Shown here one piece after another: positions 5,191 through 61,888 of a stretch of 64,000 bases of DNA. Location of the stretch: positions 48,052 to 112,051 of the forward strand of contig CALWXF010000004.1 of assembly GCA_944385445.1 (NCBI GenBank), written 5' to 3'. This DNA comes from an uncultured Oscillospiraceae bacterium (GTDB taxonomy: Bacteria > Bacillota > Clostridia > Oscillospirales > Oscillospiraceae). The notes beneath the pieces are model-generated. The model saw only the letters and a program-made list of their open reading frames with translations. It searched no databases and had not been told where the DNA came from. Position 1 is the first letter of the stretch. Each line of letters begins with the position of its first letter. Made by a program: the position numbers and the translations under genes.

Positions 5191-5726
5191 AGGCTTGCCA
5201 GCCTGGTGGGGACGCTTCCCGCTGGGGGTTCCTTTTGCTCGGTCAAAAGGAACCAAAACCCGCTTAGGGCGTTCCCCCCTAAGGACCTCCCTAGGGTACT
5301 GGTTGGAACGTGCGCCTTCCTCCCTCCGGCCCTGGACGGTTCAGGTCACATAGATGGCGTAGACGTTCTGTGGGTGGTGCCTGCTCCTCTGTAGGATGGT
5401 ACTTCTATTCCCAGGGCCTTACCCTGGTGTGCCGCTGTTCCCAGCGGTGGGAAGCCTGGCCCCCGGCGGCGGGAACGCCGCTTCTCCAGGGTAGGCCCTG
5501 GCAATCGAAGCGTGTACTATCAGAGGAGTCAACACGAACTGTAGAACAGCAAGCCATCTATGTGACCCCACCCGGGCCAGGGCCGAAATAAGAAGGACGC
5601 AGGTGCATCCAGTACCGCGGGGTGGATTCCACAAGGCGGGGGAAGGCCCCGCCTTTGGTGGGTCTTTGGTGACTTTCTGCCCAATCAGAAAGTCACCCTG
5701 CGGAGCAACTCCTGGCTGGCAAGCCT
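5191..5726 (+). repeat. Family A modular inverted element, complete (X arm left, Y arm right)
   Basis: Reference copy. In order: end AGGCTTGCCAGCC; variable hairpin TTCCTTTTG/CAAAAGGAA (about 5229-5252); X module with the CTTAGGG/CCCCTAAG hairpin; GGTCACATAGATGGC (about 5343); a central CCAGGG/CCCTGG palindrome with CGGCGGGAACGCCGC; the matching CCATCTATGTGACC (about 5558); Y module with AAGGCGGGG/CCCCGCCTT (about 5634-5656); variable hairpin TGACTTTCTG/CAGAAAGTCA; end GGCTGGCAAGCCT. The two outer ends are inverted copies. Reading frames through it are not conserved between copies. It fills the noc-parA gap. Confidence 0.85.
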
Positions 5727-5784
5727 GAATTTGGAATAATAGAAGAACGGGCTACCTCAGTCCCTCGACTGAGATAGTCCAATT

Positions 5785-5800
5785 TGTTTCACGTGAAACA
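5785..5800. promoter_or_regulatory. parS: parS site 1
   Basis: TGTTTCACGTGAAACA is the exact 16-bp Bacillus-type palindromic ParB/Spo0J binding site, 103 bp upstream of parA. Confidence 0.97.
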
Positions 5801-5825
5801 CCTATTTTTTCTTACACTGTGGTGG

Positions 5826-5854
5826 TTGAAAAAATCCTCACAAAACGGTATAAT
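5826..5854 (+). promoter_or_regulatory. Promoter of parA-parB
   Basis: TTGAAA (5826-5831), a 17-base spacer and consensus TATAAT (5849-5854), 49 bp upstream of the parA start. parS site 1 lies just upstream, so ParB spreading could affect it. Confidence 0.75.
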
Positions 5855-5902
5855 CAAACACAGTTCTGTTTATCCTTTGAATGAAAAAAGGCGGGTTGTG
5901 TT

Positions 5903-6661
5903 ATGTCAAAAACCATTGCCATTGTTAACCAAAAAGGCGGAGTGGGAAAGACCACCACCTGTGTGAATCTTGCGGCCGCTCTGGGTCAACAGGGCCGCAA
6001 GGTGCTGGTGTGCGACTTCGACCCCCAGGGCAACGCCACCTCCGGGTTCGGTGTGGACAAGTCCCACTCTCCCAGCGTGTACGACGTGCTGCTGGGCAAC
6101 GCCCCCATGTCCAAGGCCATTGTGTCCACCACCTGGGCGGACGTGGTGCCCTCCAACAAGGCCCTGTCCGGCGCCACCGTGGAGCTCATCGGCATGGACC
6201 GTCGGGAGTACCGGCTGAAGGATGCCCTGGAGGAAGTGAAGGACAACTACGACTATATCTTCATCGACTGCCCCCCTTCCCTGGAGCTGCTCACCCTGGA
6301 CTCCCTGTGCGCCGCCGACACCCTGCTGGTGCCCGTCCAGTGCGAGTACTACGCCCTGGAAGGCCTCAGCGATCTGATGTACACCGTGCGTCTGGCCAAG
6401 CGGTCCCTGAACCCCAACCTGGATTTGGAGGGCGTGGTGCTCACCATGTACGACGGGCGCACCAACCTGTCCATGCAGGTGGCGGAGGAGGTCAAGCGGT
6501 ACTTCCCCGGCAAGGTGTACGCCAACGTCATCCCCCGCAATGTGCGCCTGTCTGAGGCCCCCAGCCACGGCAAGCCGGTGCTGGCCTACGACAAGTGGTC
6601 CCGAGGCGCCGAGGCCTATGAGGCCCTGGCGGAGGAGTTTCACAACAAGAACAAAGCCTGA
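5903..6661 (+). CDS. parA: Chromosome partitioning ATPase ParA/Soj
   Basis: A 252-residue deviant Walker ATPase. The signature KGGVGKTTT starts at residue 11 (Lys11 and Lys16 are the signature and Walker lysines), Walker A' is VLVCDFDPQGN (about 36-46) and Walker B is YIFIDCPPSLELL. ParA binds DNA non-specifically when ATP-bound and works with ParB-parS complexes; in Firmicutes Soj also regulates DnaA. Length matches Bacillus Soj (253). The ATG at 5903 has only a weak upstream purine stretch (AAAAAGGCGGG). The parB start is 47 bp past its stop, with parS site 2 between them. Confidence 0.97.
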   Translation: MSKTIAIVNQKGGVGKTTTCVNLAAALGQQGRKVLVCDFDPQGNATSGFGVDKSHSPSVYDVLLGNAPMSKAIVSTTWADVVPSNKALSGATVELIGMDRREYRLKDALEEVKDNYDYIFIDCPPSLELLTLDSLCAADTLLVPVQCEYYALEGLSDLMYTVRLAKRSLNPNLDLEGVVLTMYDGRTNLSMQVAEEVKRYFPGKVYANVIPRNVRLSEAPSHGKPVLAYDKWSRGAEAYEALAEEFHNKNKA

Positions 6662-6677
6662 TGTTTCACGTGAAACA
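6662..6677. promoter_or_regulatory. parS: parS site 2
   Basis: A second perfect TGTTTCACGTGAAACA, starting at the last base-pair boundary of the parA stop and lying in the parA-parB gap. Confidence 0.97.
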
Positions 6678-6708
6678 TCCCACGAAATAGAAAGGAAGGG
6701 ATAGCCAC

Positions 6709-7593
6709 ATGGCAAAAGTCAAAGGCGGCTTAGGCCGGGGCCTGGGCGCCCTCATGGGAGACGCTGCCCTCCAGACCCAAGAGGCGGGGTCCGTCCAGCT
6801 GCCCATCTCCCAGGTGGAGCCGGGCCTGAACCAGCCCCGGAAGCGGTTTGACCAGGAGTCCCTGGCCGACCTGGCGGACTCCATCCGGGAGCACGGCATC
6901 ATCCAGCCCCTCACCGTCCGCCGTCTCTCCACCGGATACTATCAGATCATCGCCGGGGAACGCCGGTGGCGGGCCGCCAAGCAGGCGGGCCTCAGTGAGG
7001 TGCCCGTGGTCATCATTGAGGCGGACGACCGCAAGGTCATGGAGCTGGGCCTCATTGAGAACCTCCAGCGGGAGGACCTGAACCCCATGGAAGAAGCGGA
7101 GGGGTATCTGGTGCTTCTTACCGACTACGGCCTGACCCAGGAGGAGGTGGCCCGGCGGATGGGCAAGTCCCGCCCCGCCATTGCCAACGCCCTGCGTCTC
7201 ACCTCCCTCCCCCCTGCCGTCCGGGAACAGCTGGCCCAGGGCATCCTGTCCGCCGGCCATGGCCGGGCGGTGCTCATGGTGGAGGGCGAGCAGGCCCAGA
7301 CCGCCTTTGGCGCCTGGATCGCCGAACAGGGGCTGTCAGTGCGTCAGGCGGAGGCCGCCGCCAAGCACTTCACCCTGGAGCCCAAGGTGAAGAAGGAGAA
7401 GCCCACCAACGAGAACCAGATGTATATCGACCAGGCCCAGCAGCAGCTGGCCAGCCATCTGGGCCGTAAGGTGAAGATCACCAGCGGCAAGAAGAAGGGC
7501 CGCCTGGAGCTGGAGTTCTACAATGTGGACGATCTGAATAACCTGCTGGAGCAGCTCCAGCAGCTGCCGCATATGGAGCACACCCAGGAGTAA
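6709..7593 (+). CDS. parB: Chromosome partitioning protein ParB/Spo0J
   Basis: A 294-residue CTP-dependent clamp that loads at parS. The N-terminal GGLGRGLGALMG motif (residues 6-17) is the segment that stimulates ParA ATPase. The CTP-binding boxes are visible as GERRWRAAKQAG (about 84-95) and ENLQREDLNPMEEAEGY, and the helix-turn-helix as TQEEVARRMGKSRPAIANALRL. A Lys-rich linker leads to a C-terminal dimerisation domain (VKITSGKKKGRLELEFYNVDDLNNLLEQL, split here only by reading). The ATG at 6709 follows AGAAAGGAAGGG. It is co-transcribed with parA, and the two perfect parS sites next to it are its likely loading points. Confidence 0.97.
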   Translation: MAKVKGGLGRGLGALMGDAALQTQEAGSVQLPISQVEPGLNQPRKRFDQESLADLADSIREHGIIQPLTVRRLSTGYYQIIAGERRWRAAKQAGLSEVPVVIIEADDRKVMELGLIENLQREDLNPMEEAEGYLVLLTDYGLTQEEVARRMGKSRPAIANALRLTSLPPAVREQLAQGILSAGHGRAVLMVEGEQAQTAFGAWIAEQGLSVRQAEAAAKHFTLEPKVKKEKPTNENQMYIDQAQQQLASHLGRKVKITSGKKKGRLELEFYNVDDLNNLLEQLQQLPHMEHTQE

Positions 7594-7605
7594 TATCAGC
7601 CCAAA

Positions 7606-7660
7606 CGCCTCCCTTGTGCAAAGGGAGGTGGCACGGCGTAAGCCGTGACGGAGGGATTGT
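7606..7660 (+). repeat. Family B repeat (copy 3)
   Basis: CCTCCCTTGTG/CAAAGGGAGG followed by a CACGGC/GCCGTG hairpin and GACGGAGGGATTG, immediately downstream of parB. It directly precedes a family A element. Confidence 0.8.
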
Positions 7661-7685
7661 CTGCTGCATGGACACGTCAACCCCT

Positions 7686-8240
7686 CAGTCAGCCTGGCGG
7701 GGACGCTCCCCGCTGGGGGTTCCTTTTGCTCGGGCAAAAGGAACCAAAACCCGCTTAGGGCGTTCCCCCCTAAGGACCTCCCTGGGGTACGAGGCTGGAC
7801 CTGCGTCAAGTCTCGATTCGGCCCGTCACCCTTGCTGTGGCTCCTGTCACTGCCACCACACCAGGCCACCCTGGGCAGCTGGCCCTATGGCTGGTGGTTT
7901 CCACCTCCGGGCCTACCTTGGAGCAGCGGCGTTCCCGCCACCGGAAGCCTGGCCCCCGTTAGCTGGAAACAGCGGCTCACCAGAGTAAGGCCCTGGCAAT
8001 CGAAGAACAACCACACAGAGGAGTAGGCACGTTCGGTAGAAGTTCCACGCCATCTATGTGACCTCTCCAGGCCCAGGGCCGAAACAAGGAGGATGCAGGC
8101 ACATCCAGTACCGCGGGGTGGATTCCACAAGGCGGGGGAAGGCCCCGCCTTTGGTGGGTCTTTGGTGACTTTCTGCCCACTCAGAAAGTCACCCCAGCGG
8201 AGCGTCCCCGGCTGGGGCGCTGGTCTGCGCCTGAGAAATG
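7686..8240 (+). repeat. Family A element, complete (X left, Y right)
   Basis: Variable hairpins are TTCCTTTTG/CAAAAGGAA on the left and TGACTTTCTG/CAGAAAGTCA on the right. The left end is truncated against a B-type tail (CAGCCTGGCGGGG), and the right end is the alternative type, CCGGCTGGGGCGCTGG...GCGCCTGAGAAATGG. It occupies the gap between parB and serS; the remaining 60 bp carry the serS ribosome-binding site. No T-box was seen. Confidence 0.85.
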
Positions 8241-8300
8241 GTCGAAGGTCAAGCCTTCCATGATTCCATAAATACACCTGACAAAGGAGAAAAAGAGACC

Positions 8301-16264: not shown

Positions 16265-16590
16265 CTCCAATGTCTCAGGCGCAACCCTGCGCCCCCGCCG
16301 GGGACGCTCCGCTGGGGTGACTTTTGTTCGGGCAAAAGTCACCAAAACCCGCCAAAGGCGGGGCCTTCCCCCGCCTTGTGGAATCCACCCCGCCGGTACT
16401 GGGTGTGCCTGCGTCCCTCTATCGTCGGCCCTTGGCCCGGTGGGGTCACATAGATGGTGTAAGATTTCTGTGGGTAGTGCCTGCTTCTGGTGGCAGTTGG
16501 TACTTCTACTGCCAGGGCCTTACCCTGGTGTGCAGCTGTTCCCAGCTGCCGGTGGTCTGGCTGTACCATGCTTCAGGACTTCTCCAAGCC
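16265..16590 (-). repeat. Family A element, half copy (Y arm only)
   Basis: Alternative end (TCTCAGGCGCAACCCTGCGC), variable hairpin TGACTTTTG/CAAAAGTCA, Y module, CACATAGATGG, then the sequence breaks off just past the centre, where a family B repeat begins. Confidence 0.8.
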
Positions 16591-16645: not shown

Positions 16646-17221
16646 ATCGTCTCCAATGTCTCAGGCGCAACCCTGCGCTCCCGCCGGGGACGCTCCGCTG
16701 GGGTGACTTTTGTTCGGGCAAAAGTCACCAAAACCCGCTTAGGGCGTTCCCCCCTAAGGACCTCCCTGGGGTACGAGGCTGGACCTGCGTCAAGCCTATG
16801 GACGGCCCTGGCCCTGGTGAGGTCACATAGATGGCCTGGCAAGTCTATGGAACGCATTTCCTTCTCTGTGAGACGGTGCCCCTGTTTCCAGGGCCTCACC
16901 CCGGTGTGCGGCGTTTCCGCCGCCGGGAACCAGGCCCCCGTTAGCTGGAAACAGCGGCTCACCAGGGTAAGGCCCTGGCGGTAGAAGGATGCAGGAACAG
17001 AGAAGTAAATCCAAACCATAGAACGGCGAGCTATCTATGTGACCCCACCAGGCCAAGGGCTGAAAAGAGAAAGACGCAGGTGCGCCCAGTACCGCGGGGT
17101 GGATTCCACAAGGCGGGGGAAGGCCCCGCCTTTGGCGATTCTTTCCCCGATTTCTCATCGGGGAGAAATCGGGCCCAGCGGAGCGTCCCCGGCTGGGGCG
17201 CAGGTTTGCGCCTGAGAAATG
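16646..17221 (+). repeat. Family A element, complete (X left, Y right)
   Basis: Both ends are of the TCTCAGGCGCAA type. Variable hairpins: TGACTTTTG/CAAAAGTCA left, CCGATTTCTC/GAGAAATCGG right. The centre carries CGGCGTTTCCGCCGCC. Confidence 0.85.
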
Positions 17222-23267: not shown

Positions 23268-23535
23268 GGCCTGCCAGCCTGGTGGGGACGCTCCCCGCTG
23301 GGGGTACCTTTTGAGCGGGCAAAAGGTACCAAAACCCGCTTAGGGCGTTCCCCCCTAAGAACCTCCCTGGGGTACGGGGCTGTCCCTGCGTCAAGTGTCA
23401 GTTCGGCCCTGGCCCCGGTGGGGTCACATAGATAGCCTGGCAAATCTATGGGCAGCGCCCCCTTCTCTGTGAGTCGATGCCGCTCCTTCCAGGGCCTTAC
23501 CCTGGTGTGCGGCGTTTCCGCCGCCGAGCGAATCC
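23268..23535 (+). repeat. Family A element, half copy (X arm only)
   Basis: Type I end, variable hairpin TACCTTTTG/CAAAAGGTA, X module, CACATAGATAGCC and the left part of the centre ending in CGGCGTTTCCGCCGCC. It lies between remB and gyrB; the rest of that 449-bp gap is a family C repeat and AT-rich sequence next to the gyrB start. Confidence 0.8.
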
Positions 23536-23567
23536 TCCGGTAACTGCCAGCCTCAAGCCTCCCGGAG

Positions 23568-25004: not shown

Positions 25005-25216
25005 TCCACCGTCAGCTCCAGCTGTGCGTCCACCTCCACCACGTCGCCGGGGCGGATTTTCTTACCCCGCATGGTGCAGGTCTCGCCGTTGACCTTCACC
25101 AGACCGTCCTGGACGATCTGCTTGGCCTCACCGCCGGTGGCCACGGCGTTGGCAAACTTCAAAAGAGAGTCCAGCTTGATGAACTCGGTGGTGATCTGAA
25201 TCTTGTCCTTTTGCAT
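25001..25216 (-). CDS. yaaA: S4-domain RNA-binding protein (YaaA/RlbA type)
   Basis: 71 residues forming a single S4 RNA-binding fold: [27 protein letters not shown] followed by [24 protein letters not shown]. In Bacillus the same small gene sits between dnaN and recF. Its role is thought to be in ribosome biogenesis. The ATG at 25216 follows AAGGAGGAAC. Confidence 0.92.
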
Positions 25217-25261
25217 GGAATGTTCCTCCTTGCAGAGCCTTGGCCCTGCACTTCTTCACTC

Positions 25262-25310
25262 GTCTCTCCCCCTAGGAGAGGTGGCAGCCCACAGGGCTGA
25301 CGGAGAGGGC
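25262..25310 (+). repeat. Degenerate family B-like repeat (copy 10)
   Basis: CTCTCCCCCTAGGAGAG hairpin, then GCAGCCC/GGGCTGA and GGAGAGGGCTTG. The architecture is that of family B but the sequence is diverged; it abuts a family A element as the B copies do. Confidence 0.5.
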
Positions 25311-25315
25311 TTGTC

Positions 25316-25502
25316 CTTCTCCGATTCCCCAAGCGGAAACCAGCGCCCCCGCCGGGGACGCTCCGCTGGGCCCGATTTCTCCCCGATGAGAAATCGGGGA
25401 AAGAATCGCTTAGGGCGTTCCCCCCTAAGCGGGTTTTGGTTTCTTTTGCCCGCTCAAAAGAAACCCCCAGCGGGAAGCGTCCCCGCCAGGCTGGCAAGCC
25501 TA
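25316..25502 (+). repeat. Family A miniature element (ends fused around one X hairpin)
   Basis: About 190 bp. The two ends with different variable hairpins (CCGATTTCTC/GAGAAATCGG and TTTCTTTTG/CAAAAGAAA) flank a single CTTAGGG/CCCCTAAG hairpin; the whole centre and Y module are missing. It fills the dnaN-yaaA gap together with a B-like repeat and 70 bp of AT-rich sequence. Confidence 0.8.
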
Positions 25503-25573
25503 CGCCAAGGAATCCTTTACAAGGAAAATCTAATATTTCAATCGGAAATAAATATACATCAATTATTGTATAT

Positions 25574-32050: not shown

Positions 32051-32616
32051 TCTCCGATTTCCTCGGTGGAAACCAGCGCCCCCACCGGGGACGCTCCGCT
32101 GGGGTGACTTTCTGAGTGGGCAGAAAGTCACCAAAGACCCACCAAAGGCGGGGCCTTCCCCCGCCTTGTGGAATCCACCCCGCGGTACTGGGTGTCCCTG
32201 CGTGCTCCTTGTTTCGGCCCTGGTCCTGGTGGGGTCACATAGGTGGCGTGAAAATTCTACCGAACGTGCCTGCTCCTCTGTGTGGCTGTTCTTCTATTGC
32301 CAGGGCCTTACTCTGGTGTGCCGCTGTTCCCAGCGATCGTGGGCTTGGCTCCCGGCGGCGGGAACGCCGCTTCTCCAAGGTAGGCCCGGATGTGGAAATT
32401 GCCCAGCTGTAGGGCCAGCTGCCCAAGGTGGCCTGGTGTGGTGGCAGTAGCAGGAGCCACAGCAAGAGTTGCGGGCCGAACCTAGGCTTGACGCAGTTCC
32501 AGCCTCGTACCCCAGGGGGGTACTTAGGGGGGAACGCCCTAAGTGGCTTTTCGTCCATTTTGGCCAGTCAAAATGGACCCCCAGCGGGGAGCGCGTTCCC
32601 TAGGCTTCCAAGCCTG
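32051..32616 (-). repeat. Family A element, complete (Y left, X right)
   Basis: The opposite orientation to the copy at 5191. Variable hairpins: TGACTTTCTG/CAGAAAGTCA left and TCCATTTTGG/TCAAAATGGA right, the latter a stem sequence seen only here. A degenerate B-like tail (GGAGAGGGGACAGTCCGTAG, about 32020-32044) adjoins its left end. It fills most of the 754-bp khpB-yaaO gap. Confidence 0.85.
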
Positions 32617-36432: not shown

Positions 36433-36461
36433 TGGAAAAGGCGGAGCTGTGTCACGCACCA

Positions 36462-36518
36462 AAGGCTCCCCTGTGTAAGGGGAGCTGTCAGCCCATAAGG
36501 GCTGACTGAGGGGTTGAC
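36462..36518 (+). repeat. Family B repeat (copy 11)
   Basis: GCTCCCCTGTG/TAAGGGGAGC and CAGCCC/GGGCTG hairpins, TGAGGGGTTGACG end. Confidence 0.8.
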
Positions 36519-36534
36519 GGTACGAGTAGAAGTC

Positions 36535-36590
36535 AATCCCTCCGACCCGGCTTACGCCGGCCCACCTCCCTTTGCACAAGGGAGGCTTTC
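36535..36590 (-). repeat. Family B repeat (copy 12)
   Basis: Inverted relative to the preceding copy, 17 bp away: CAATCCCTCCGACCCGGC...GCCGG, CTCCCTTTGC/AAGGGAG. Confidence 0.8.
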
Positions 36591-37597: not shown

Positions 37598-40500
37598 ATG
37601 AAACCCGCGTTGAAACGAAAATTACGACGCACCATCTCTGCAACTCTGGCAACACTCCTGGCCACCGGACTGGTCGCCCCAGCCCTGGCCGCCCGGTACT
37701 CCGGCGCAGAGGTCTATGACCATGTGCTGGAGATGCGGGAGGAGCATTTCCAGAACAGCATCCGCTTCAATGAGGATGGCACCGCCAACATTTCCGGTGA
37801 CGAGTGGTACGACCAGAGCGAAGTCATCGGCATCAACCGTGAGCGGGCCAAGAGCCAGTTCATCTCCTATCAGGACACCGCCACCGCTCTGAAGGCAGAG
37901 CAGTCCGTGCTGGACGACGTGGGTCCTGAGACCTCGGACTACTACATGCTGCTGTCCGGCAAGGACTGGGACTTCGCCATGGTGAAGACCCCCGAAGAGG
38001 CCAAGAAGGTAGACGAGACCTATCTGGCCAAGGACTACACCGGGGATGCCTTCCAGCCGGAGTATGTGCCCCAGGCCTGGCAGACCTACCGCAATGAGGA
38101 CGGTACCTTCAAGTATGACGAGCCCATGTACACCAACCATGCTCTGCCCTGGTTCAGCAACTTTGAGCCCGTCAACTATGGGGACCCCCATGCCCCCACC
38201 GTATACAACCCCGTAGGCTACTACCGCACCAGCTTTGAGGTGCCTGAGAATTGGGATGGACGTGAGGTGTTCATCTCCTTCCAGAGCGTGGAGTCCGCCT
38301 ACTACCTGTATGTCAACGGCCAGAAGGTGGGCTATTCCACCGACGCCTTCACCGCCCACGACTTCAACATCACCCCCTACCTCACCGAGGGTGAGAACAC
38401 CATCGCTCTGAAGGTGTTCCGTTGGTCCATCGGCAGCTGGCTGGAGAACCAGGACTTCATCCGCCAGAGCGGTATTTACCGTGATGTGTACCTGTACTCC
38501 AAGGACGAGGCAGAAATCCGGGACTTCTTCGTGAAGACCCAGTTTGACGACCGCACCAGCGAGGACAGCGACGTGGCCGTCACCGTGGAGACCGACGTGC
38601 GCGCCCTCCACAATGAGCAGGCGGGAACTTACACAATTTCCTCCTACATTGTGGATAACTCCGGCGAGACCGTGGCCACCGCCGACAACCAGACCGTGGA
38701 GCTGAAGGCCGCTGGTTCCTATGAGGACAAGCTGTCCGACGCGGGCACCACCGTCACCAGCACCATGAAGGTGACCAATCCCGCCAAGTGGTTCCCCGAC
38801 ACCCCCAACCTGTACTCTCTGGTGCTGGAGCTCAAGGACGCCGACGGTAACGTCATGGAGTCCGTGGTGGAGCGCATCGGCTTCCGTGAGATCTACAAGG
38901 TGGACATCGACGACCAGGGCCACGAGCAGATGCAGATCACTGGCCGTCAGGTGGTGCTGCGTGGTGTCAACCGCCACGACACCGATCTGGAGACCGGACA
39001 TGCCCTCACCTTCCAGGACTACCTCACCGATCTGACCCTGATGAAGGAGCACAACCTCAACGCCATCCGTACGTCTCACTACCCCAACGACAAGGCTCTG
39101 TACGACCTGGCCGATGAGCTGGGCCTGTATGTGTGCGCCGAGGCCAACATTGAGAGCCACCGTGCCGCTATGCAGGGCGTGAAGGTACCCACCGGTACCG
39201 GACAGGGTATGCCCGAGTGGGTTGCCACCGTCACCGACCGTGTGGTCACCAACCTGGAGCACTACAAGAACAACCCCAGTGTCATCATGTGGTCCCTGGG
39301 CAACGAGGCCACCTACAGCTACGCCCCCCTCAATGAGGACTACGGCTTCTGGGTTGCCTCCATGTACCTGCTCAAGCGTGACCCCAGCCGTCTGCGCAAG
39401 TACGAGCGTGAGAGCGAGAACTATCAGCACCCCTACGTCAAGCAGAACGGTCAGGACCCCTGGAGCACCGACGTGCGTAAGAACAACATCGTGGACGTGC
39501 ACTCCACTCAGTATGTGCTGCCCAACTACGTGGCCGGCTACAATGGACGCATGCCCCTCATCCACTCCGAGTACAACCACGCCATGGGCCTGTCCTACGG
39601 CAATGCCATGGAGCACTGGGACGCCATCCGTGAGAACGACCAGGCTCAGGGCGGCTTCATCTGGGACTACATCGACCAGTCCATCCGCACCGTGCGGGAC
39701 AACGGCGACGGCACCTATGACGAGTTCTGGGGCTACGGCGGCGACTGGATCGACCCCAACGCCAACGACGACGCCTTCTGCGGCAACGGTATGCTCTTTG
39801 CCGACCGCACCCCCACCCCCAAGATGACCGAGGCCAAGAAGGTCCACCAGCAGGTGAACTTCTACCTGGATGACCAGACCGTCACCTCCGGCCAGGACGT
39901 GACCTTGAAGGTGGTCAACGAGTATGAGAACACTACCCTGGACGCCTTCGACATCACTTGGAAGCTCACCAAGGACGGCCTGACCGAGCTGGGCTCCGGC
40001 ACTCTGGACCTGAACACCCCCAACATGGACGGTCAGTCCCTGATGAGCGGTCAGCAGGTGGAGAATGTCACCATCACCCTGCCCGAGTTTGAGGCTGTGG
40101 AGGGCAGCGACTACCTGCTGGACATCTCCGTCACCCTCAAGAACGCCACCAACTGGGCCGAGGCCGGCTACGAGGTGGCCTATGAGCAGTTCCAGCTCAA
40201 CCCCGACGACGCTCAGGCCACTGAGACCCAGGTGCCCGACAAGGCCTTCGAGTCCGTGGAGGAGCTGGGCAGCCAGATGACCCTCACCGGTACCACCGAC
40301 AACGGCCAGAAGTTTGAGATCGTGCTGGACACCGAGAGCGGCACCATCGTCTCCTACAGCCTGGACGGCAGCGTGGTCATGACTCAGGGCCCCGAGCAGA
40401 GCCTGTACCGCGCTGAGACCTACAACGACACCACCGTGGCCAAGAACGCCAACCTGAAGAACGCCGGCGCCACCGAGAACCTGTCCAACCTGGAGGTCTC

Positions 40501-43500
40501 CGTGAACACCAGCGAGAACAAGGTGCTCATGGCCATGAACGGCACCATGAAGGTGTCCGCCTCTGCCCTGATGGCCTACGAGATCTACGGCAACGGCGAG
40601 ATCGTGGTCCTCAGCCAGTTCATCCCCACCAGCAACTTCGCCCCCAACGGCCTGCCCAAGATCGGTGGCCGTATGATCATCAACGGCGACTATGACAACC
40701 TCACCTTCTATGGCCGTGGTCCCGACGAGAACTATGTGGACCGTAAGAGCGGCTCCACCGTGGGCGTGTACACCTCCAAGGTGTATGATCCCGACGACGC
40801 CATGGGCGAGAACTCCAACTGGGACGGCAAGAGAATGCTCAAGCCCCAGGAGAACGGCAGCCGCACCGACATCCGCTGGACCGCTCTGACCAATGACCAG
40901 GGCGTGGGCCTGATGGTCACCGGCGACGGCCTGCTGGAGAGCTCGGTGAGCCACTACACCGCCGAGGACATGAACTCCGGCACCTACAACAGCGCCACCT
41001 ATCGTCACCCCAACCAGGTTCCTCAGCGTCAGGAGATCGTGTGGAACATCGACCTGCACCAGAACGGTGTCAGCGACACCGCCTTCATGGGTCACAAGCC
41101 TCTGGACGGCTACTTCTTCCCCACCAACCAGAGCTACTCCTACTCCTATCGCATCTCCCCCGTCAGCACCAACGATGTGGGCCAGCTGATGGACAAGAGC
41201 AACGAGGGCTTTAAGGTTCCCACCTCCTCTTACCCCATCACCGGCATCTACATCAACGACAACGCTGTGGCCGGCTTTGACGTCAACAGCGAGACCGGCG
41301 CCAGCTACACTCTGGCCGCCAACGAGTCCATCGAGTCCGTCACCGTGGACGGCACCAACGACTTCACCGTCACCTACAACGAGGACGGCACCCTCACCGT
41401 CTCCGCTGCCAACAGCTATGGCCAGGAGTTCAACTATGTGGTCAAGCTGGGCCGTGAGGGCAAGGAGCTGGACCGCTCCGTCCTGTCCAAGGTCAAGGTG
41501 GACAACTACTATCCCGGCGAGGATGGCAGTAAGCTCATCGACGGCAACAACAACTCCATCTGGCACTCCAACTGGAGCATCTCCACTCCCATGAACAAGC
41601 TGTGGTTCATGGTGGAGCTCAAGGACGAGACCGCCATCAACGGCATCCGCTACCTGCCCCGTAGCCAGGGCTACAACGGTACCTATGGCCAGCACGAGGT
41701 CTATGTCAGCTCCAAGTCCATTGACCAGCTCACCAGCGACGTGAGCAGCGGCGACTGGACCAAGGTGGGCACCGGCAGCTGGCCCAAGACCCACGACTGG
41801 AAGACCACCGCCTTCGGCGAGATGGTCAACGCCAAGACCGTCATGGTGGTGCCCAAGACCACCTACGGCGACACCGAGAACGCCTGGGGCTCCGGCGCTG
41901 AGTTCCGTGTCACCGCCGGCACCGTCATCAACGCCGCCGATGTCACCGTCAACCTGGAGGACAGCTACACCTACAAGGGTGAGGCCGTCCGTCCCGCCCC
42001 CGAGGTGAAGCTGGGCGACCAGACCCTCATCCGTGGCGTGGACTACACCGTGGACTACACCGACAACGAGGCTGTGGGCACTGGTAAGCTCACCATCAAC
42101 TTCTGCGGCGCCTTCGCTGGCGATGCCATCGAGAAGGAATTCAACATCGTGGAAGGCCAGCAGCGCACCCTGACCCTGACCCTGGGCGACCGCACCACCC
42201 AGGAGCAGGTGTATGTGGGTCAGACCATCACCCTGGAGGCCGGCGAGGCCCCCGAGAACAAGATGTTCGACCACTGGTCTGCTGACAACGACGGCGTGAA
42301 GTTCGCCGACGCCAACAGCGAGACCACCACCTTCGTGATGCCCGACGCCAACGTCACCGTCACCGCCAACTATGTGGACGCCTACACCGTCACCGTAGTG
42401 AACGGCTTCCTGGACGAGGACGGCACCATCACCTCTCAGAAGTACAAGGTCGGCTCCTCCGTGGTCTTCTACGCCGACATCCCCGAGGGCAAGGTTTTCG
42501 ACGTGTGGACCATTGACAGCGAGGATGCCAGCATCACCGACCCCGCCCGGAACCCCGGCCTGATGAACTCCACCCCCGCCCACGACATCGTGGTCACCGC
42601 CAACTTCAAGACCGATCCCAACTACTTCGCCGTTCTGGAGACCCTGCCCGATCACCACTATCTGGGCACCACCTTCACCGCTCCCGAGACCCTGCGCATC
42701 GTCCAGGGCGACCAGGAGTCTGAGGCCGCTGTGACCTGGAACGAGGCCCAGGTGAAGGCCATCCAGGACGCCACCTCCGTGTGCACCCTGCCTCTGACCG
42801 GCACCGTGGCCGATCATGAGATCTCCACCACCGTGGCTGTGGTGCCCGGCAACGTGGTCTACTTCGTGGACAACGGCTCTGAGGCCTTCTCTCAGCTGGC
42901 CCAGACCATCCTGAAGTACAACGCCGACACCGTGCGCAACACCACTCCCGATCAGTTCTATGATGCCGAGAGCGGCTGGGGCTGCACCAACCCCGAGTCT
43001 GAGGTTGAGACCCACAACGACTACGGCACCGACGCCTATTCCACCATCCGCAACATGACCGATACCAAGGGCGAAGACCCCAACGACGGCCGTGGCAAGC
43101 CCCTGACCTACCAGTTCGACAACCTGGAGGCCGGCACCTATCAGGTGTTCGTGGGCTACAAGAACATCTGGTATCAGACCACCTGGCAGCGCAACGCCAC
43201 CATCGAGCTGCTCCAGGGTGACAGCGTTCTGGCTTCCGTGGAGAAGAACCTGAACGTGGAGAAGGGCCAGTTCGTCCAGATGGAGATGGAAGTCACCGAG
43301 GCTGGCTCTGTGGAGCTGAAGATGACGCCCAAGGAGAACGCCAACGCCAACAACGACATGCTGGTCAGCTACATCCTCATCACCAAGGACGGCGAGATCG
43401 TCCAGCCTGAGGAGTACACCGTTACCGTGAATACCCAGGGCGAGGGCACCGCTGCTGCCGAGCCCACCACCGCTACCGCTGGCACCACCGTGACCCTGAC

Positions 43501-44497
43501 TGAGCAGGCTGCTGAGGGCTGGCACTTCGTGGAGTGGCAGAGCGAGGACGTCACCGTCACCGATAACACCTTCGTGATGCCCGAGGGCAACGTCACCGTT
43601 ACCGCCGTGTTCGAGAAGGACGCCGCCCCCGGCGAGGTCAACAAGAGCCTGCTGGAGAAGACCGTCAAGTACGCCGAGACTCTGTCCACCGAGGGCGTCA
43701 CCGACACCGCCAAGAAGGCCTTTGAGGACGCTCTGGCCAACGCAAAGACCATCCTGGCCAAGGATGACGCCACCCAGGAAGAAGTCAACGCCGCTTGGGA
43801 CGCCCTGCTGGAGGGCATCTGGGGTCTGGGCCTGACTCAGGGCGACAAGACCCTGCTGAACCTGACCATTGAGCGCGCCGAGGACATGATGGCCAACGCC
43901 GACAAGTACATGCCCGACCACTGGCAGGATCTGGTGGACGCTCTGGAGGCCGCCAAGAAGGTGGCTGAGGACGGCGACGCCATGCAGGAGGACGTGGACA
44001 AGGCCGCTGGCGACCTACTCAACGCCATCCTGGCCCAGCGCTACAAGGCCGACAAGTCCATCCTGGAAGACCTGCTGAACCAGGCTGAGGGCATGGACCT
44101 CTCCGGTTACACCGAGGAGTCCGTGGCCACCTTCCGCACCGCTCTGGCCGCTGCCCAGGCTGTGATGGCCGACGCCACCCTGTCTGAGGACGATCAGGCC
44201 AAGGTGGACGACGCCGTGGCTGCGCTCCGCAGCGCCATGGAGGGCCTCACCGCTGAGGGCGAGACCCAGCCCAGCGATAAGCCCGAGGCCTCTGAGAAGC
44301 CCGAGACCACCGATCAGCCTGAGGCTACGGACAAGCCCGAGGGCACTCAGAAGCCGGATGCCACTGAGAAGCCCGACACCGAGGGTCCCGCTCAGACTGG
44401 CGATTCCGCTCAGCTGATGCTGTATGTGGCCGCTCTGGCTGCCGCTGTGGCCGTGCTTGGCGCTGTCACCGTGATGCGCCGCCGTCGCAGCCACTAA
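37598..44497 (+). CDS. Secreted multidomain GH2 beta-galactosidase with C-terminal anchor
   Basis: 2299 residues. Signal peptide about 1-32 (ending VAPALAA); GH2 sugar-binding domain about 180-305; Ig-like about 305-435; TIM barrel about 435-750 with acid/base Glu570 in WSLGNEAT and nucleophile Glu658 in IHSEYNHAMG; LacZ-type small-chain domain about 900-1190 (FYGRGPDENYVDR); discoidin-like domain about 1300-1446; Ig-like and bacterial beta repeats about 1447-1670; Ig-like about 1685-1750; a carbohydrate-binding-type domain about 1750-1935; another beta repeat; three FIVAR-like helical repeats about 2010-2210; a Pro/Glu/Thr linker; then QTGD, a membrane helix and RRRRSH. Sugars with terminal beta-galactose, such as mucin or milk glycans, are likely substrates. 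QTGD is a poor match to the sortase LPXTG signal. The ATG follows AAAGGGAGG. Confidence 0.93.
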   Translation: MKPALKRKLRRTISATLATLLATGLVAPALAARYSGAEVYDHVLEMREEHFQNSIRFNEDGTANISGDEWYDQSEVIGINRERAKSQFISYQDTATALKAEQSVLDDVGPETSDYYMLLSGKDWDFAMVKTPEEAKKVDETYLAKDYTGDAFQPEYVPQAWQTYRNEDGTFKYDEPMYTNHALPWFSNFEPVNYGDPHAPTVYNPVGYYRTSFEVPENWDGREVFISFQSVESAYYLYVNGQKVGYSTDAFTAHDFNITPYLTEGENTIALKVFRWSIGSWLENQDFIRQSGIYRDVYLYSKDEAEIRDFFVKTQFDDRTSEDSDVAVTVETDVRALHNEQAGTYTISSYIVDNSGETVATADNQTVELKAAGSYEDKLSDAGTTVTSTMKVTNPAKWFPDTPNLYSLVLELKDADGNVMESVVERIGFREIYKVDIDDQGHEQMQITGRQVVLRGVNRHDTDLETGHALTFQDYLTDLTLMKEHNLNAIRTSHYPNDKALYDLADELGLYVCAEANIESHRAAMQGVKVPTGTGQGMPEWVATVTDRVVTNLEHYKNNPSVIMWSLGNEATYSYAPLNEDYGFWVASMYLLKRDPSRLRKYERESENYQHPYVKQNGQDPWSTDVRKNNIVDVHSTQYVLPNYVAGYNGRMPLIHSEYNHAMGLSYGNAMEHWDAIRENDQAQGGFIWDYIDQSIRTVRDNGDGTYDEFWGYGGDWIDPNANDDAFCGNGMLFADRTPTPKMTEAKKVHQQVNFYLDDQTVTSGQDVTLKVVNEYENTTLDAFDITWKLTKDGLTELGSGTLDLNTPNMDGQSLMSGQQVENVTITLPEFEAVEGSDYLLDISVTLKNATNWAEAGYEVAYEQFQLNPDDAQATETQVPDKAFESVEELGSQMTLTGTTDNGQKFEIVLDTESGTIVSYSLDGSVVMTQGPEQSLYRAETYNDTTVAKNANLKNAGATENLSNLEVSVNTSENKVLMAMNGTMKVSASALMAYEIYGNGEIVVLSQFIPTSNFAPNGLPKIGGRMIINGDYDNLTFYGRGPDENYVDRKSGSTVGVYTSKVYDPDDAMGENSNWDGKRMLKPQENGSRTDIRWTALTNDQGVGLMVTGDGLLESSVSHYTAEDMNSGTYNSATYRHPNQVPQRQEIVWNIDLHQNGVSDTAFMGHKPLDGYFFPTNQSYSYSYRISPVSTNDVGQLMDKSNEGFKVPTSSYPITGIYINDNAVAGFDVNSETGASYTLAANESIESVTVDGTNDFTVTYNEDGTLTVSAANSYGQEFNYVVKLGREGKELDRSVLSKVKVDNYYPGEDGSKLIDGNNNSIWHSNWSISTPMNKLWFMVELKDETAINGIRYLPRSQGYNGTYGQHEVYVSSKSIDQLTSDVSSGDWTKVGTGSWPKTHDWKTTAFGEMVNAKTVMVVPKTTYGDTENAWGSGAEFRVTAGTVINAADVTVNLEDSYTYKGEAVRPAPEVKLGDQTLIRGVDYTVDYTDNEAVGTGKLTINFCGAFAGDAIEKEFNIVEGQQRTLTLTLGDRTTQEQVYVGQTITLEAGEAPENKMFDHWSADNDGVKFADANSETTTFVMPDANVTVTANYVDAYTVTVVNGFLDEDGTITSQKYKVGSSVVFYADIPEGKVFDVWTIDSEDASITDPARNPGLMNSTPAHDIVVTANFKTDPNYFAVLETLPDHHYLGTTFTAPETLRIVQGDQESEAAVTWNEAQVKAIQDATSVCTLPLTGTVADHEISTTVAVVPGNVVYFVDNGSEAFSQLAQTILKYNADTVRNTTPDQFYDAESGWGCTNPESEVETHNDYGTDAYSTIRNMTDTKGEDPNDGRGKPLTYQFDNLEAGTYQVFVGYKNIWYQTTWQRNATIELLQGDSVLASVEKNLNVEKGQFVQMEMEVTEAGSVELKMTPKENANANNDMLVSYILITKDGEIVQPEEYTVTVNTQGEGTAAAEPTTATAGTTVTLTEQAAEGWHFVEWQSEDVTVTDNTFVMPEGNVTVTAVFEKDAAPGEVNKSLLEKTVKYAETLSTEGVTDTAKKAFEDALANAKTILAKDDATQEEVNAAWDALLEGIWGLGLTQGDKTLLNLTIERAEDMMANADKYMPDHWQDLVDALEAAKKVAEDGDAMQEDVDKAAGDLLNAILAQRYKADKSILEDLLNQAEGMDLSGYTEESVATFRTALAAAQAVMADATLSEDDQAKVDDAVAALRSAMEGLTAEGETQPSDKPEASEKPETTDQPEATDKPEGTQKPDATEKPDTEGPAQTGDSAQLMLYVAALAAAVAVLGAVTVMRRRRSH

Positions 44498-44641: not shown

Positions 44642-45038
44642 CCTCCGATTTCCTTGGCGCAAACCAGCGCCCCCGCCGGGGACGCTCCGCTGGGCCCCCT
44701 TTCTCAGCGATGAGAAAGAGGGGAAAGAATCGCCAAAGGCGGGGCCTTACCCGGGTGAGCCGCTGTTCCCAGCTATCGGCGGCGGGAACGCCGCTTCTCC
44801 GGGGTGAGGCCCTGGAAGGAGAGGCACCATCTTACAGAGAAGGGGGCGCTTCCCATAGACTTGCCAGGCCATCCATGTGACCCCACCAGGGCCTGGGCCG
44901 ACCATAGCCTTGACGCAGGTCCAGCCTCGTACCCCAGGGAGGTCCTTAGGGGGGAACGCCCTAAGCGGGTTTTGGTTCCTTTTGACCGAGCAAAAGGAAC
45001 CCCCAGCGGGAAGCGTCCCCACCAGGCTGGCAAGCCTG
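44642..45038 (-). repeat. Family A element, shortened (Y left, X right)
   Basis: The Y arm loses the part between its hairpin and the centre (it jumps from AAGGCGGGGCCTT to the central CGGCGGGAACGCCGC region); the X arm is intact. Variable hairpins: CCCTTTCTC/GAGAAAG left and TTCCTTTTG/CAAAAGGAA right. Confidence 0.8.
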
Positions 45039-51730: not shown

Positions 51731-51768
51731 AGGCTTGCCAGCCTGGTGGGGACGCTCCCCGCTGGGGA
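51731..51768 (+). repeat. Family A end fragment
   Basis: AGGCTTGCCAGCC through CGCTGGGG only, the X-arm end with no hairpins. A family B repeat follows 17 bp later. Confidence 0.7.
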
Positions 51769-51784
51769 CTGGCAGCGCACTTCC

Positions 51785-51836
51785 AAAGGCTCCCCTGTGT
51801 AAGGGGAGCTGTCTGCGAAGCAGACTGAGGGGTTGT
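51785..51836 (+). repeat. Family B repeat (copy 14)
   Basis: GCTCCCCTGTG/TAAGGGGAGC and TCTGC/GCAGA hairpins; the second stem is different from all other copies but still paired. Confidence 0.75.
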
Positions 51837-51857: not shown

Positions 51858-52400
51858 GGCTTGCCAGCCAGGTGGGGACGCTCCCCGCTGGGGGTTCCTT
51901 TTGCTCGGTCAAAAGGAACCAAAACCCGCTTAGGGCGTTCCCCCCTAAGGACCTCCCTGGGGTACGGGGCTGTCCATGCGTCAAGTCTAAATTCGGCCCG
52001 TCACCCTTGCTGTGGCCCCTGGTACTGCCACCACACCAGGCTACCCTGGCAGCTGGCCCTATGGCTGGGTGATTTCCCTATCCGGGCCTACTCTGGAGAA
52101 GCGGCGTTCCCGCCGCCGATAGCTGGGAACAGCGGCTCACCCAGGTAAGGCCCTGACGATAGAAGCACTGTCTGCCAGAGGAGTAGGTATTTTCCGTAGA
52201 ACATCCACGCCATCTATGTGACCCCACCAGTTCAAGGGCCAAAAAGAGGAAGGCGCACGCTCCATCCAGTACCGCGGGGTGGATTCCACAAGGCGGGGGA
52301 AGGCCCCGCCTTTGGCGATTCTTTCCCCTCTTTCTCATCGCTGAGAAAGGGGGCCCAGCGGAGCGTCCCCGGCTGGGGCGCTGGTTTCCGCCTGAGAAAT
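51858..52400 (+). repeat. Family A element, complete (X left, Y right)
   Basis: Variable hairpins: TTCCTTTTG/CAAAAGGAA left, CTTTCTC/GAGAAAG right. It lies between mnmA and mobA, flanked on both sides by B repeats. The remaining 180 bp next to mnmA is unremarkable. Confidence 0.85.
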
Positions 52401-57881: not shown

Positions 57882-57900
57882 GCGGGCACACCTAGAATTC

Positions 57901-59313: not shown

Positions 59314-59350
59314 GGGGAGTTCCTCCAGTATTCATAAGGTTATAACATAT

Positions 59351-59468: not shown

Positions 59469-59527
59469 CATGACAGTGGTGGCAAAACAAGACGAACCGC
59501 ACCCGGGGCATTCCCAGGTCTTGTGCG

Positions 59528-59556
59528 TTGACAGCACCAGGGCGACGTGATAGAGT
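59528..59556 (+). promoter_or_regulatory. Promoter of the LTA-synthase-like gene
   Basis: TTGACA (59528-59533), 17-base spacer, TAGAGT (59551-59556); start codon 49 bp downstream. Confidence 0.65.
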
Positions 59557-59604
59557 AGAGCAAATTGTTTCAAATCCGTAGGTTCCCCATAAGGAGACTA
59601 TCAT

Positions 59605-61560
59605 ATGCTACATACCGCTGAACGTCTGCGCCAGGCCCTGCTCCGCCGCTGTGGGGGAGCTGCTGTGGTGCTGCCGGTGGCCGTGGTGCTCCATGCCCTG
59701 GTGGTGGCCCTGGTGGACCAGGTCATCGTCCACCAGAGCTTGGCCGTCCTGCCCTCCTGCCTCACGGCCGGGTGGTTTTGGTGGACGGTGGGGCTTATGG
59801 CCCTCTTCACCGGCCTGCTCACCTTCTTCACCCGCACCATTCTGCCCGGGGCCATCCTCACCGCCGTGGCCCCCACCATCATGGTGTTTTCCAGCTACTT
59901 CAAGGCCCTCATCACCTCGGTGCCCCTCACCGTCCAGGACTTCCTGCTCCTGGGCCAGCTGGGGGATATCACCCAGCTCAACGCCTCCTCCCTCCACTTC
60001 TCCCCCCTCAGCCTGGGGTGCATCCTCTTCTTGGTGCTGTGGCTGGTGGTGGTGTGCCTGCTGCTCTACCCCGTGCGCCTGGAGCGCAAGGTGAGCCTGT
60101 GGGCGGGAGCGGGCTGTGTGGCCGCTGTGGCCCTAGTGTACGGGGTGGCGGCCAACCCCCTCATCTTCGCCCCCAGAGGGGTGAGCATCGACCAGAAGCT
60201 GTCCCAGGCCACGGTGAACCGGGAGACCGGGGTGCTGTTGGGCCTGTGGCGGGGCGCCCTCAACCAGGTGTACATGGCCCTCCATGAGGGGGACACCTCA
60301 CCGGAGGAGCTGGAGCGGGCGGCCCAGCAGGCCGCAGAGTTGGCCAGCCAGGAGGCGGATGCCACGGTGGAAACCCAGCCCAACGTCATCCTCATCCTCT
60401 CCGAGTCCTTCTTCGACGTCACCCGCCTGCCCGGGGTCACCTTTGACGGGGACCCCTTGGAGACCTTCCACAGCCTGCAACAGGAAGGAGTATCCGGGAC
60501 CTTTTATACTCGGAGTTTAGGATATGGCACCTGTAACATCGAGCTGGAGATCCTCACGGGGATGAACACCGGCCTTTTGTGGGGGGAGGACCTGTACAAC
60601 ATGGACCCCCAGGTGTTCTCCCGTCTGCCCTCGGTGCCCTCGGTGCTGCGGGACAGCGGCTACTCCACCCGGATGGTGCACATGTACGACGACTCCATCT
60701 ACAAGCGCACCCCCATGTTTGAGGCCATGGGCTTTGAGGAGACGTACTTCCAGGACGACTTTGCCGCCATCGACCCCCAGGCCGGGGACGAGGCCTACCT
60801 GGAGGGGCAGCGGGAGGGCAGCTTCTACTCGGACGCCTACCTGTCCCAGCTGCTCATGGACCTGTACGAGGACGGCAAGGGGGAGGGGCCCCAGTTCCTC
60901 TACGGGATTTCCATGGAGAACCACGCCCCCTATGACAAGGAGAAGTACGACGCCCAGGAGCTGACGGTGGCTTTCCAGTCCGACCTCAAGGGTCAGGCCC
61001 AGGAGATGCTCCAGGCGGTGGTACAGGGCACCCACGACGCCAGCGAGGCTCTGGGGCAGCTGGCCGACTACTTCCGGGACCAGGAAGAGCCCACGGTCAT
61101 CGTGTTCTTCGGGGACCACCGCCCTGGGGTGGGCCTCACGGACGGGGGCACGGTGTACTCCAAGCTGGGGCTGTGCTCCTCCGATTACAGCCGCTGGTCC
61201 ACCCAGGAGATGAAGGAGCTGTACTCCACCGACTATCTCATCTGGTCCAACGACCCGGACTACCTGCCCGGGCAGCCTGGAGACCAGATGGACCGGGGGT
61301 CCAACTACCTGGGGGTGGATCTGCTGAACCTGGCAGGGGTGGAGAAGCCCGTGTACTGGAGCTTTTTGCAAAACCTGTCCCACACCCGGCTCAACGACAC
61401 CTGGGTGTATAGTTTGGCCCAGGACGGCACCCTCACCTACAGGCACCCCACCACCGGGTCGGACGGGGAGAAGCTGGACCTGCTGAGTACCCTGCTGGAC
61501 GATGCCTTGTACGGGGACCAGGTGGCGACCCCTGTGCTGAGGGAACGGGGGATCAAATGA
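59605..61560 (+). CDS. LTA synthase family sulfatase (phosphoglycerol transferase-like)
   Basis: 651 residues. About five N-terminal membrane segments (residues 15-185), then a linker and an extracellular sulfatase-fold domain (about 255-570). The likely nucleophile is Thr309 in GYGTCNIELEILTGMNTG; metal-binding residues are in LILSESFFD and IVFFGDHRPGVG. Such enzymes add glycerol-phosphate units to cell-surface polymers; whether the product is classical lipoteichoic acid is not known. ATG 59605 follows TAAGGAGAC. The TGA stop is the first part of a family C repeat. Confidence 0.88.
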   Translation: MLHTAERLRQALLRRCGGAAVVLPVAVVLHALVVALVDQVIVHQSLAVLPSCLTAGWFWWTVGLMALFTGLLTFFTRTILPGAILTAVAPTIMVFSSYFKALITSVPLTVQDFLLLGQLGDITQLNASSLHFSPLSLGCILFLVLWLVVVCLLLYPVRLERKVSLWAGAGCVAAVALVYGVAANPLIFAPRGVSIDQKLSQATVNRETGVLLGLWRGALNQVYMALHEGDTSPEELERAAQQAAELASQEADATVETQPNVILILSESFFDVTRLPGVTFDGDPLETFHSLQQEGVSGTFYTRSLGYGTCNIELEILTGMNTGLLWGEDLYNMDPQVFSRLPSVPSVLRDSGYSTRMVHMYDDSIYKRTPMFEAMGFEETYFQDDFAAIDPQAGDEAYLEGQREGSFYSDAYLSQLLMDLYEDGKGEGPQFLYGISMENHAPYDKEKYDAQELTVAFQSDLKGQAQEMLQAVVQGTHDASEALGQLADYFRDQEEPTVIVFFGDHRPGVGLTDGGTVYSKLGLCSSDYSRWSTQEMKELYSTDYLIWSNDPDYLPGQPGDQMDRGSNYLGVDLLNLAGVEKPVYWSFLQNLSHTRLNDTWVYSLAQDGTLTYRHPTTGSDGEKLDLLSTLLDDALYGDQVATPVLRERGIK

Positions 61561-61592
61561 ATAGTGAAGAATGCCTGCGGCACGGATTTTAT
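61557..61592 (+). repeat. Family C repeat at the LTA-synthase stop
   Basis: AATGAATAGTGAAGAATGCC then TGCGGCACGGATT; the stop TGA is inside AATGAATAG. Confidence 0.6.
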
Positions 61593-61616
61593 AAGGGTCT
61601 GGGAATCACCGGAAGT

Positions 61617-61888
61617 CAGGCTCTCGGCGGCGGGAACGCCGCTTCTCCATGGTAGGCCCGGACATGGAAACCACCCAGCTGTAGGGCCAGCTGCCCAGGG
61701 GGGCCTGGTATAGTGGCAGGAACAGGAGCCACAGCAAGGGTGACGGGCCGACCATAGACTTGGCGCATGGACAGCCTCGTACCCCAGGGGGGTGCTTAGG
61801 GGGGAACGCCCTAAGCGGGTTTTGGTTCCTTTTGACCGAGCAAAAGGAACCCCCAGCGGGAAGCGTCCCCACCAGGCTGGCAAGCCTG
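61617..61888 (-). repeat. Family A element, half copy (X arm only)
   Basis: Begins in the centre (CTCGGCGGCGGGAACGCCGC) and ends with TTCCTTTTG/CAAAAGGAA and GGCTGGCAAGCCTG. The break point in the centre is the same as at 23535. Confidence 0.8.

What the first reader, a model, noticed from the sequence alone, without database searches (positions are those of the whole stretch)
5191..61888. A dispersed family of large modular inverted elements (family A) with compensated stem changes
Ten copies plus one end fragment, about 4.5 kb in total, sit only between genes (5191, 7686, 16265, 16646, 23268, 25316, 32051, 44642, 51731 fragment, 51858, 61617). Every complete copy joins one X arm (CTTAGGG/CCCCTAAG hairpin) to one Y arm (AAGGCGGGG/CCCCGCCTT hairpin) in inverted orientation around a CCAGGG...CCCTGG centre, with CACATAGATGG and CCATCTATGTG paired across. 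The outer hairpin of each arm varies in sequence but stays paired: TTCC/GGAA, TGAC/GTCA, TACC/GGTA, TTTC/GAAA, TCCA/TGGA, CGAT/ATCG. Such compensation argues for selection on structure, either an RNA or extruded DNA. No frame is kept among copies. It may be a non-autonomous mobile element or a structured non-coding RNA family; I do not know a described family that matches.
Basis: seen in the sequence. Interest (0 to 1): 0.85.

Follow-up and report, generated by a model that had tools for sequence, protein, structure and literature searches.

The report
Pseudoknot-ended dispersed DNA elements
Dozens of copies of a non-coding element, about 530 bases long when complete, sit between the genes of this gut bacterium; each complete copy has two inward-facing ends that fold into a hairpin, a pseudoknot and a second hairpin, and the same kind of end occurs in many genera of its order, which suggests a widespread, so far unnamed sort of dispersed, probably mobile DNA recognised by its folded shape.

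Summary
The repeat is real, but only 5 of the 11 window places are complete; the genome regions fetched hold 55 clusters, 39 complete. CACATAGATGG and CCATCTATGTG occur together in only 13 of 83 copies.

Compensation lies in the arms. Each arm is a hairpin (S1), a loop pairing with four bases downstream (S2, an H-type pseudoknot), an A-rich linker and a second hairpin (P3). Models of S1 plus P3 hit 69 of 400 genomes of the family and 41 of 394 of the order. In the family set 17 of 18 pairs change on both sides; loop and S2 match at 3.50 of 4 bp against 2.24 shuffled, 0 of 3000, although S2 was not modelled. G.U is almost absent and G.T equals A.C, so RNA selection is not indicated. Copies lie mostly beyond the genes' own terminators, without strand preference. 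Between sister species, arms swap as blocks and flip.

Best reading: a non-autonomous palindromic DNA element family whose ends are read as folded single-stranded DNA. No transposase, target duplication or empty site was found, so mobility is inferred. It resembles BOX and REP elements; no Rfam family matched.

The parts
5192..5725 (+). Complete copy (X to Y); X-arm core 5227-5283 (+), Y-arm core 5630-5697 (-); centre inverted relative to most copies and to the An44 orthologue
7688..8215 (+). Complete copy; X core 7718-7774 (+), Y core 8126-8193 (-); the sister species has a different intergenic sequence here
16296..16560 (+). Partial copy, Y half; core 16316-16380 (+)
16680..17196 (+). Complete copy; X core 16702-16758 (+)
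23268..23540 (+). Partial copy, X half to the centre; X core 23303-23359 (+); nearly identical in the sister species
25350..25500 (-). Short form: two outer hairpins sharing one inner hairpin (25409-25465 (-) and 25371-25429 (+))
32086..32614 (-). Complete copy, opposite orientation; Y core 32103-32170 (+), X core 32523-32579 (-)
44673..45036 (-). Internally deleted copy; X core 44945-45001 (-)
51732..51769 (+). Terminal fragment of an X arm
51858..52375 (+). Complete copy; X core 51893-51949 (+); opposite X/Y orientation in the sister species at a shared left junction
61619..61886 (-). Partial copy, X half; X core 61795-61851 (-)

Best explanation
Family A is one branch of an order-wide class of non-coding, non-autonomous dispersed DNA elements about 270-770 bp long. 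Shown: two inward-facing arms lie at the ends, each with hairpin S1, a pseudoknot helix S2 between the S1 loop and the four bases before the second hairpin, an A-rich linker and hairpin P3. Shown: Watson-Crick covariation in S1, S2 and P3 across genera and families. Shown by comparison with one sister species: block exchange within arms and opposite orientation at shared junctions. Inferred: the folded arm is read as single-stranded DNA (or an extruded hairpin) by an enzyme acting in trans that needs one arm of each kind, and this spread the copies; the two different P3 hairpins would be its two end signals. Inferred: copies survive in untranscribed gaps behind terminators because they do least harm there, and repeated inversion and gene conversion between copies shuffle outer hairpins, linkers and terminal modules.
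For: 55 clusters, 39 complete, 25.8 kb in the G000 regions fetched. Arm core in 69 of 400 genomes and 35 of 106 genera of the family at E<=0.01 per genome (some 4 genomes expected by chance at that limit), and 41 of 394 genomes and 28 of 168 genera of the order at E<=1e-4 (at most 14 candidates scored per genome). 138 distinct arms from 210 kept of 251 matches: 88 loop/S2 combinations, mean 3.50 of 4 bp against 2.24 shuffled, 0 of 3000, 20 kinds of full S2 helix; outside the window's family 26 combinations, 3.38 against 2.25, 0 of 3000 (a few antisense matches remained in the set). Covariation 0.635 against 0.188. One search lists 44 inward pairs; less one locus listed twice (L201/L269), one sharing an arm (L272), two with a probably antisense arm (L297, L298) and one of the window's genus (L240), 39 remain, spans 266-770. 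G.T 304 against A.C 314 in 129 strand-symmetric pairs, 137 against 113 in the window genome alone. Gene context of 36 placed copies: convergent 14, same sense 11, opposite 9, divergent 2; terminator-like hairpin at 29 of 48 gene 3' ends, 1 of 24 control 5' ends. Ten loci complete in both sister species: 6 same and 4 opposite orientation, 3 of the 4 sharing a junction by eye; arm block swap, centre inversion and co-changed outer hairpins.
Against: No transposase was tied to it: Y1_Tnp (PF01797) has no match in G000 (91% complete), and of the 5 carriers of A in that search one has strong matches, two weak ones and two none; other transposase families were not searched. No clean empty site or target duplication was seen; at 3 of 4 loci aligned the whole intergenic stretch differs. 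No autonomous copy: the longest ATG ORF inside the 44 pairs is 170 aa. No plasmid, phage or viral match. Two Y-arm types (loop GCCGCC with linker ACCGCC, 17 of 84; GCTGCC with ACCACC, 5 of 84) do not form S2, and 35 of 88 S2 combinations fall short of 4 bp. The A-rich linker is also what RNA H-type pseudoknots have (recalled).
Confidence: 0.55

Rival explanations
1. A structured RNA class: each arm is an RNA domain (hairpin, H-type pseudoknot with A-rich third loop, hairpin) that binds a protein or acts in cis when copies are transcribed; the inverted layout gives one sense domain on either strand.
For: Strong covariation including a pseudoknot; conserved A-rich linker.
Against: Seven G.T among 1543 S1 and P3 pairs of distinct arms and 7 G.U cells among 1660, where 5 tRNAs from the same loci give 6 among 105 pairs (small, and found by pairing); G.T equals A.C; no strand bias, and terminator-like hairpins between genes and copies.
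Confidence: 0.2
2. Passive palindromic DNA: S1 and P3 stay perfect because template switching at replication forks corrects imperfect palindromes, and copies spread by gene conversion; structure is not recognised by anything.
For: Most distinct stems are perfectly paired with hardly any one-sided changes; block swaps and inversions between orthologues.
Against: It does not readily make a 4-bp complementarity between a loop and bases lying beyond the 3' strand of the stem, seen in 20 different sequences; nor the one-X-one-Y rule (34 of 39).
Confidence: 0.12
3. A bidirectional gene-end element (terminator, insulator or mRNA 3'-end protector) kept for the host.
For: Common at gene 3' ends, rare between divergent genes.
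Against: 29 of 48 genes have a terminator-like hairpin before the copy; at syntenic loci between genes mostly 93-98% identical the element can be absent and another sequence present; patchy presence, 9 of 40 relatives by DNA search.
Confidence: 0.08

Closest known systems
Pneumococcal and S. suis BOX elements (PMC3049150, passages read)
   Same: Modular intergenic repeats with two different end modules, folded as a whole, clustered with and inserted into other repeats, over-represented between convergent genes; S. suis end modules of 115 and 133 nt are of similar size to X and Y arms
   Different: No loop-linker pseudoknot is mentioned in the passages read; here the ends covary across an order, orientation differs at shared junctions, and no IS partner was found
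REP / BIME repeats and RAYT or TIRYT transposases (PMC3733652, passages read)
   Same: Palindromic units in inverted pairs; subfamilies with alternative complementary stem residues; some sit inside larger palindromes
   Different: The GTAG or CGTC tag of REP was not looked for; units here are about 50-100 nt with two hairpins and a pseudoknot, paired at 270-770 bp; no Y1 transposase match in the window genome; that paper reports G.T pairing often, here almost none
MITEs (review PMC10969869, passages read)
   Same: Short, non-coding, inverted-repeat ends, many copies, intergenic
   Different: Not A+T-rich (61.4% G+C against 61.1% for the window); no target duplication or parent IS found
Integron attC sites and IS200/IS605 hairpin ends (recalled)
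   Same: Structure rather than sequence is recognised, on single-stranded DNA
   Different: No integrase or Y1 gene linked; ends are inverted relative to each other

Membership tests
MITE | Terminal inverted repeats | tested here: met
   Two inward-facing homologous arms
MITE | Target-site duplication | tested here: inconclusive
   No clean empty site among the loci aligned
MITE | A+T-rich | tested here: not met
   One copy 0.614 G+C against 0.611 for the window
MITE | Related autonomous IS in the host | tested here: inconclusive
   Only Y1_Tnp searched, no match in G000; no long ORF inside pairs
REP/RAYT system | RAYT (Y1_Tnp) gene in the genome | tested here: not met
   0 matches in G000, 91% complete
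REP/RAYT system | GTAG or CGTC tag at the foot of the palindrome | not tested
   No pattern count was made
BOX-like modular repeat | Two distinct end modules, variable interior, whole element foldable | tested here: met
   34 of 39 copies one X and one Y inner hairpin; z -11.5 for one copy
BOX-like modular repeat | Sequence homology to BOX | not tested
   No BOX sequence was compared
Any Rfam 15 RNA family | Match at the gathering score over the element | tested here: not met
   Window: only a T-box outside the element; lower-threshold scans of one copy, 7 loci and 18 loci mostly of other genera gave no gathering-level match over an element (a T-box and a tRNA beside elements)
Structured RNA | Covarying base pairs | tested here: met
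Structured RNA | Strand asymmetry (G.U tolerated, A.C not) | tested here: not met
   304 against 314; 137 against 113; arms G.T 7, A.C 14
Structured RNA | Transcription | not testable with these tools
   No RNA-seq available

The most novel reading that the evidence does not exclude
An order-wide class of mobile DNA whose ends are folded single-stranded-DNA pseudoknots: the loop-to-linker S2 helix (at least 20 sequence versions, almost without G.T) works as a specificity code between an end and its recombinase or partner end, and hairpin cassettes carrying different codes are swapped between copies.
Probability: 0.3. Interest if true: 0.92.

Novelty: new variant of a known kind. Interest (0 to 1): 0.76.

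Why it matters
Dispersed palindromic repeats are known, but conserved pseudoknots at their ends, covarying almost without G.U across an order of gut bacteria, would point to an unknown recombination machinery that reads folded DNA. The covariation gives a ready model for finding carriers, a way to look for the enzyme by co-occurrence, and a test for structure selection on DNA rather than RNA. Several arm matches lie within a few dozen bases of contig ends, so these repeats probably break assemblies.

Tried and rejected
RAYT/IS200 as present driver: Y1_Tnp has no match in G000 and does not parallel the carriers. DUF3800-XI RNA: one match of 19.3 bits, gathering 37.8, none in 7 other loci, no DUF3800 gene match in G000. 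Clostridiales-2 RNA: 22-27 bits against 58.6 with one hairpin aligned. Plasmid, phage and viral carriage: none found. Centre orientation as a common switch: 58 of 83 copies one way, 1 clearly inverted, 24 not classified by my pattern. Long-range X-Y stems as conserved RNA: few two-sided changes and equal G.T and A.C. Stretches of An44 (L092 and half of L086) were sought in G000 for clean empty sites; none came out of it. Literature: the searches listed no description of this repeat; the 250 palindromic candidates of PMC8040213 (passages read) could include it, its supplement was not readable here.
Full report
OBSERVATION. The window is G000:C4:48052-112051 of a 2.15-Mb draft. Profile searches with X- and Y-arm models find arms at the places named. 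Complete copies span about 515-535 bp in the window; five are complete, the rest partial. In the genome regions fetched there are 104 arms in 55 clusters, 39 complete, 25.8 kb; the true number may be higher because the draft is incomplete and only stretches could be read. X-Y orientation on the contigs is 21 to 18.

TAXA. Named genomes with an exact X-arm pattern are Pseudoflavonifractor sp. An44 and An85, P. capillosus An386a, Candidatus Enterenecus avicola and uncultured bacteria, 48 stretches. G010 is An44 by matching contig lengths. A whole-element DNA search hit 9 of 40 relatives, all in one genus, G000 among them.

WHERE COMPENSATION LIES. I aligned 83 distinct complete copies and folded both strands; 129 pairs are common to both folds. 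G.T cells 304, A.C cells 314, so neither strand is favoured. On the 39 copies of G000 alone: 137 and 113 in 110 pairs. In one search, 13 of 22 outer-hairpin pairs had two or more Watson-Crick types, 8 of 107 elsewhere, 11 of the 14 such pairs fall in the outer hairpins by their columns. Inner hairpins are the most conserved segments, 1.86 and 1.83 bits per column against 0.85-1.65 for the other segments. Outer stems such as GGTGAC, CCCGAT, GTCCA and GGTTCC occur in both X and Y arms.

PSEUDOKNOT. In the window's genus the loop of the outer hairpin matches the linker beyond chance: 55 combinations, mean best run 3.89 against 3.18 shuffled, 0 of 2000 (194 of 199 arms parsed). Two Y-arm types are exceptions (17 and 5 of 84). 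A DNA search of 300 family genomes found two genomes of another genus with 79-85% identity; their arms keep the layout with new loop and linker sequences. A covariance model R1 of S1 plus P3 only, from 20 X arms, matched 69 of 400 family genomes, 35 of 106 genera, at E<=0.01. A second model R2 from 103 matches matched 41 of 394 order genomes, 28 of 168 genera, at E<=1e-4. On the R1 matches 17 of 18 pairs changed on both sides; 398 cells with two-sided change against 104 shuffled; 98.1% of cells paired; 7 G.U cells of 1660. That alignment is fitted to the model, so S2, unpaired in the model, is the independent evidence: 0 of 5000 shuffles in the family set, 56 combinations, 3.57 against 2.25; 0 of 3000 in the joint set of 88 and 0 of 3000 for 26 combinations outside the family. 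In S2, 311 of 352 positions are Watson-Crick, 1 G.T, 6 A.C, 34 other; 53 of 88 combinations make all 4 bp. E-values of both models are rough because calibration was short.

ARCHITECTURE ELSEWHERE. One search lists 44 inward pairs. L201 and L269 are the same locus, two L272 pairs share an arm, L297 6664-7068 and L298 3418-3847 probably use an antisense match, and L240 is of the window's genus, which leaves 39, spans 266-770. In family f7, five of six aligned elements share one interior and pair one P3 of type TTAAGGGAGAGGG with one of type CAAAGGGGAGAAA, as X and Y do here; the sixth pairs the same two types with another interior (by eye). The longest ATG frame inside the 44 pairs is 170 aa.

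DYNAMICS. Long syntenic blocks of An44 and the window genome are mostly 93-98% identical. Of 45 clusters then known, 28 could not be compared, mainly because little of An44 had been fetched. Among 10 loci complete in both, 6 keep orientation (84-95% identity) and 4 are reversed; the reversed ones, turned round, are 75-81% identical, no more than paralogues (median 79%, maximum 88% of 300 pairs). For one same-orientation locus (L058) a paralogue is as close as the orthologue. Three reversed loci share a junction with the sister by eye, which suggests flipping or conversion in place rather than independent insertion. At 5192 the X-arm terminus, outer hairpin and linker differ as a block, and the centre is inverted; at L064/L090 both outer hairpins changed with their partners while 582 of 625 aligned bases agree overall. 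At 7686, 25316 and L068:6103 the whole intergenic stretch differs; at 23268 the partial copy is nearly identical. These data show turnover, not transposition.

CONTEXT. 36 placed copies of 39: convergent 14, same sense 11, opposite 9, divergent 2; terminator-like hairpins lie between 29 of 48 gene 3' ends and the copy, against 1 of 24 5' ends (genes from a hexamer score trained on the window, not from annotation). With An44 included: 19, 12, 10 and 4 of 45 placed and 44 of 62. So copies sit mostly where little should be transcribed.

INTERPRETATION. S2 needs a single strand, so a plain double-stranded site does not explain it. Near absence of G.U and equal G.T and A.C argue against RNA but rest on expectation plus a small tRNA control (6 G.T, 0 A.C in 105 pairs). 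I therefore favour recognition of folded single-stranded or extruded DNA at the ends of a non-autonomous element, working like BOX, REP or attC systems without being filed in any of them. The enzyme is unknown; this is the weakest link.

NOVELTY. No Rfam family matched the arms at its gathering score in the scans made, and the paper searches named in Tried and rejected listed no description; the library is open-access only. I call it a new variant of a known kind (dispersed palindromic repeat), with a fair chance of something categorically new.

Noticed in passing
window 841-57878, 18 sites (for example 7604-7659, 36461-36589, 51785-51835): A second repeat, family B: two small hairpins (CTCCC..GGGAG and GTCAGCC..GGCTGAC..GAGGGATTG), 60 copies in 443 kb of loci; it abuts A arms facing inward at 23-37 nt in 24 of 131 arms, away in 1.
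   Followed up: partly
An44 loci syntenic to window 7593-8300 and 25216-25549, and to L068:6071-6686: Other sequence, by eye including a repeat (AATGAAGAATGAAAAAT with GTGTGCCGC..GCGGCACA), fills the intergenic stretch where the window genome has family A.
   Followed up: no
L061 2150-3180, L073 1980-3020, L077 12080-13480: Other repeats lie between the two apical hairpins of A, so repeats appear nested in one another (by eye).
   Followed up: partly
window 37598-44497 and G000 surface-protein genes: A 2299-aa surface beta-galactosidase with FIVAR domains; by my count 8 of 27 matches that reach this C-terminus have an A copy within about 500 nt of the 3' end.
   Followed up: partly
window 61989-62211: T-box leader (114.7 bits) just downstream of a partial A copy.
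   Followed up: no
window about 5785-5800 and 6662-6677: parS-like TGTTTCACGTGAAACA sites beside parA/parB-like genes (names recalled from sequence).
   Followed up: no
Y arms with loop GCCGCC or GCTGCC (22 of 84): Loop and linker do not pair as they stand, but would pair over 3 bp if the S1 hairpin were inverted in place; inversion of single hairpins may occur (read by eye).
   Followed up: no
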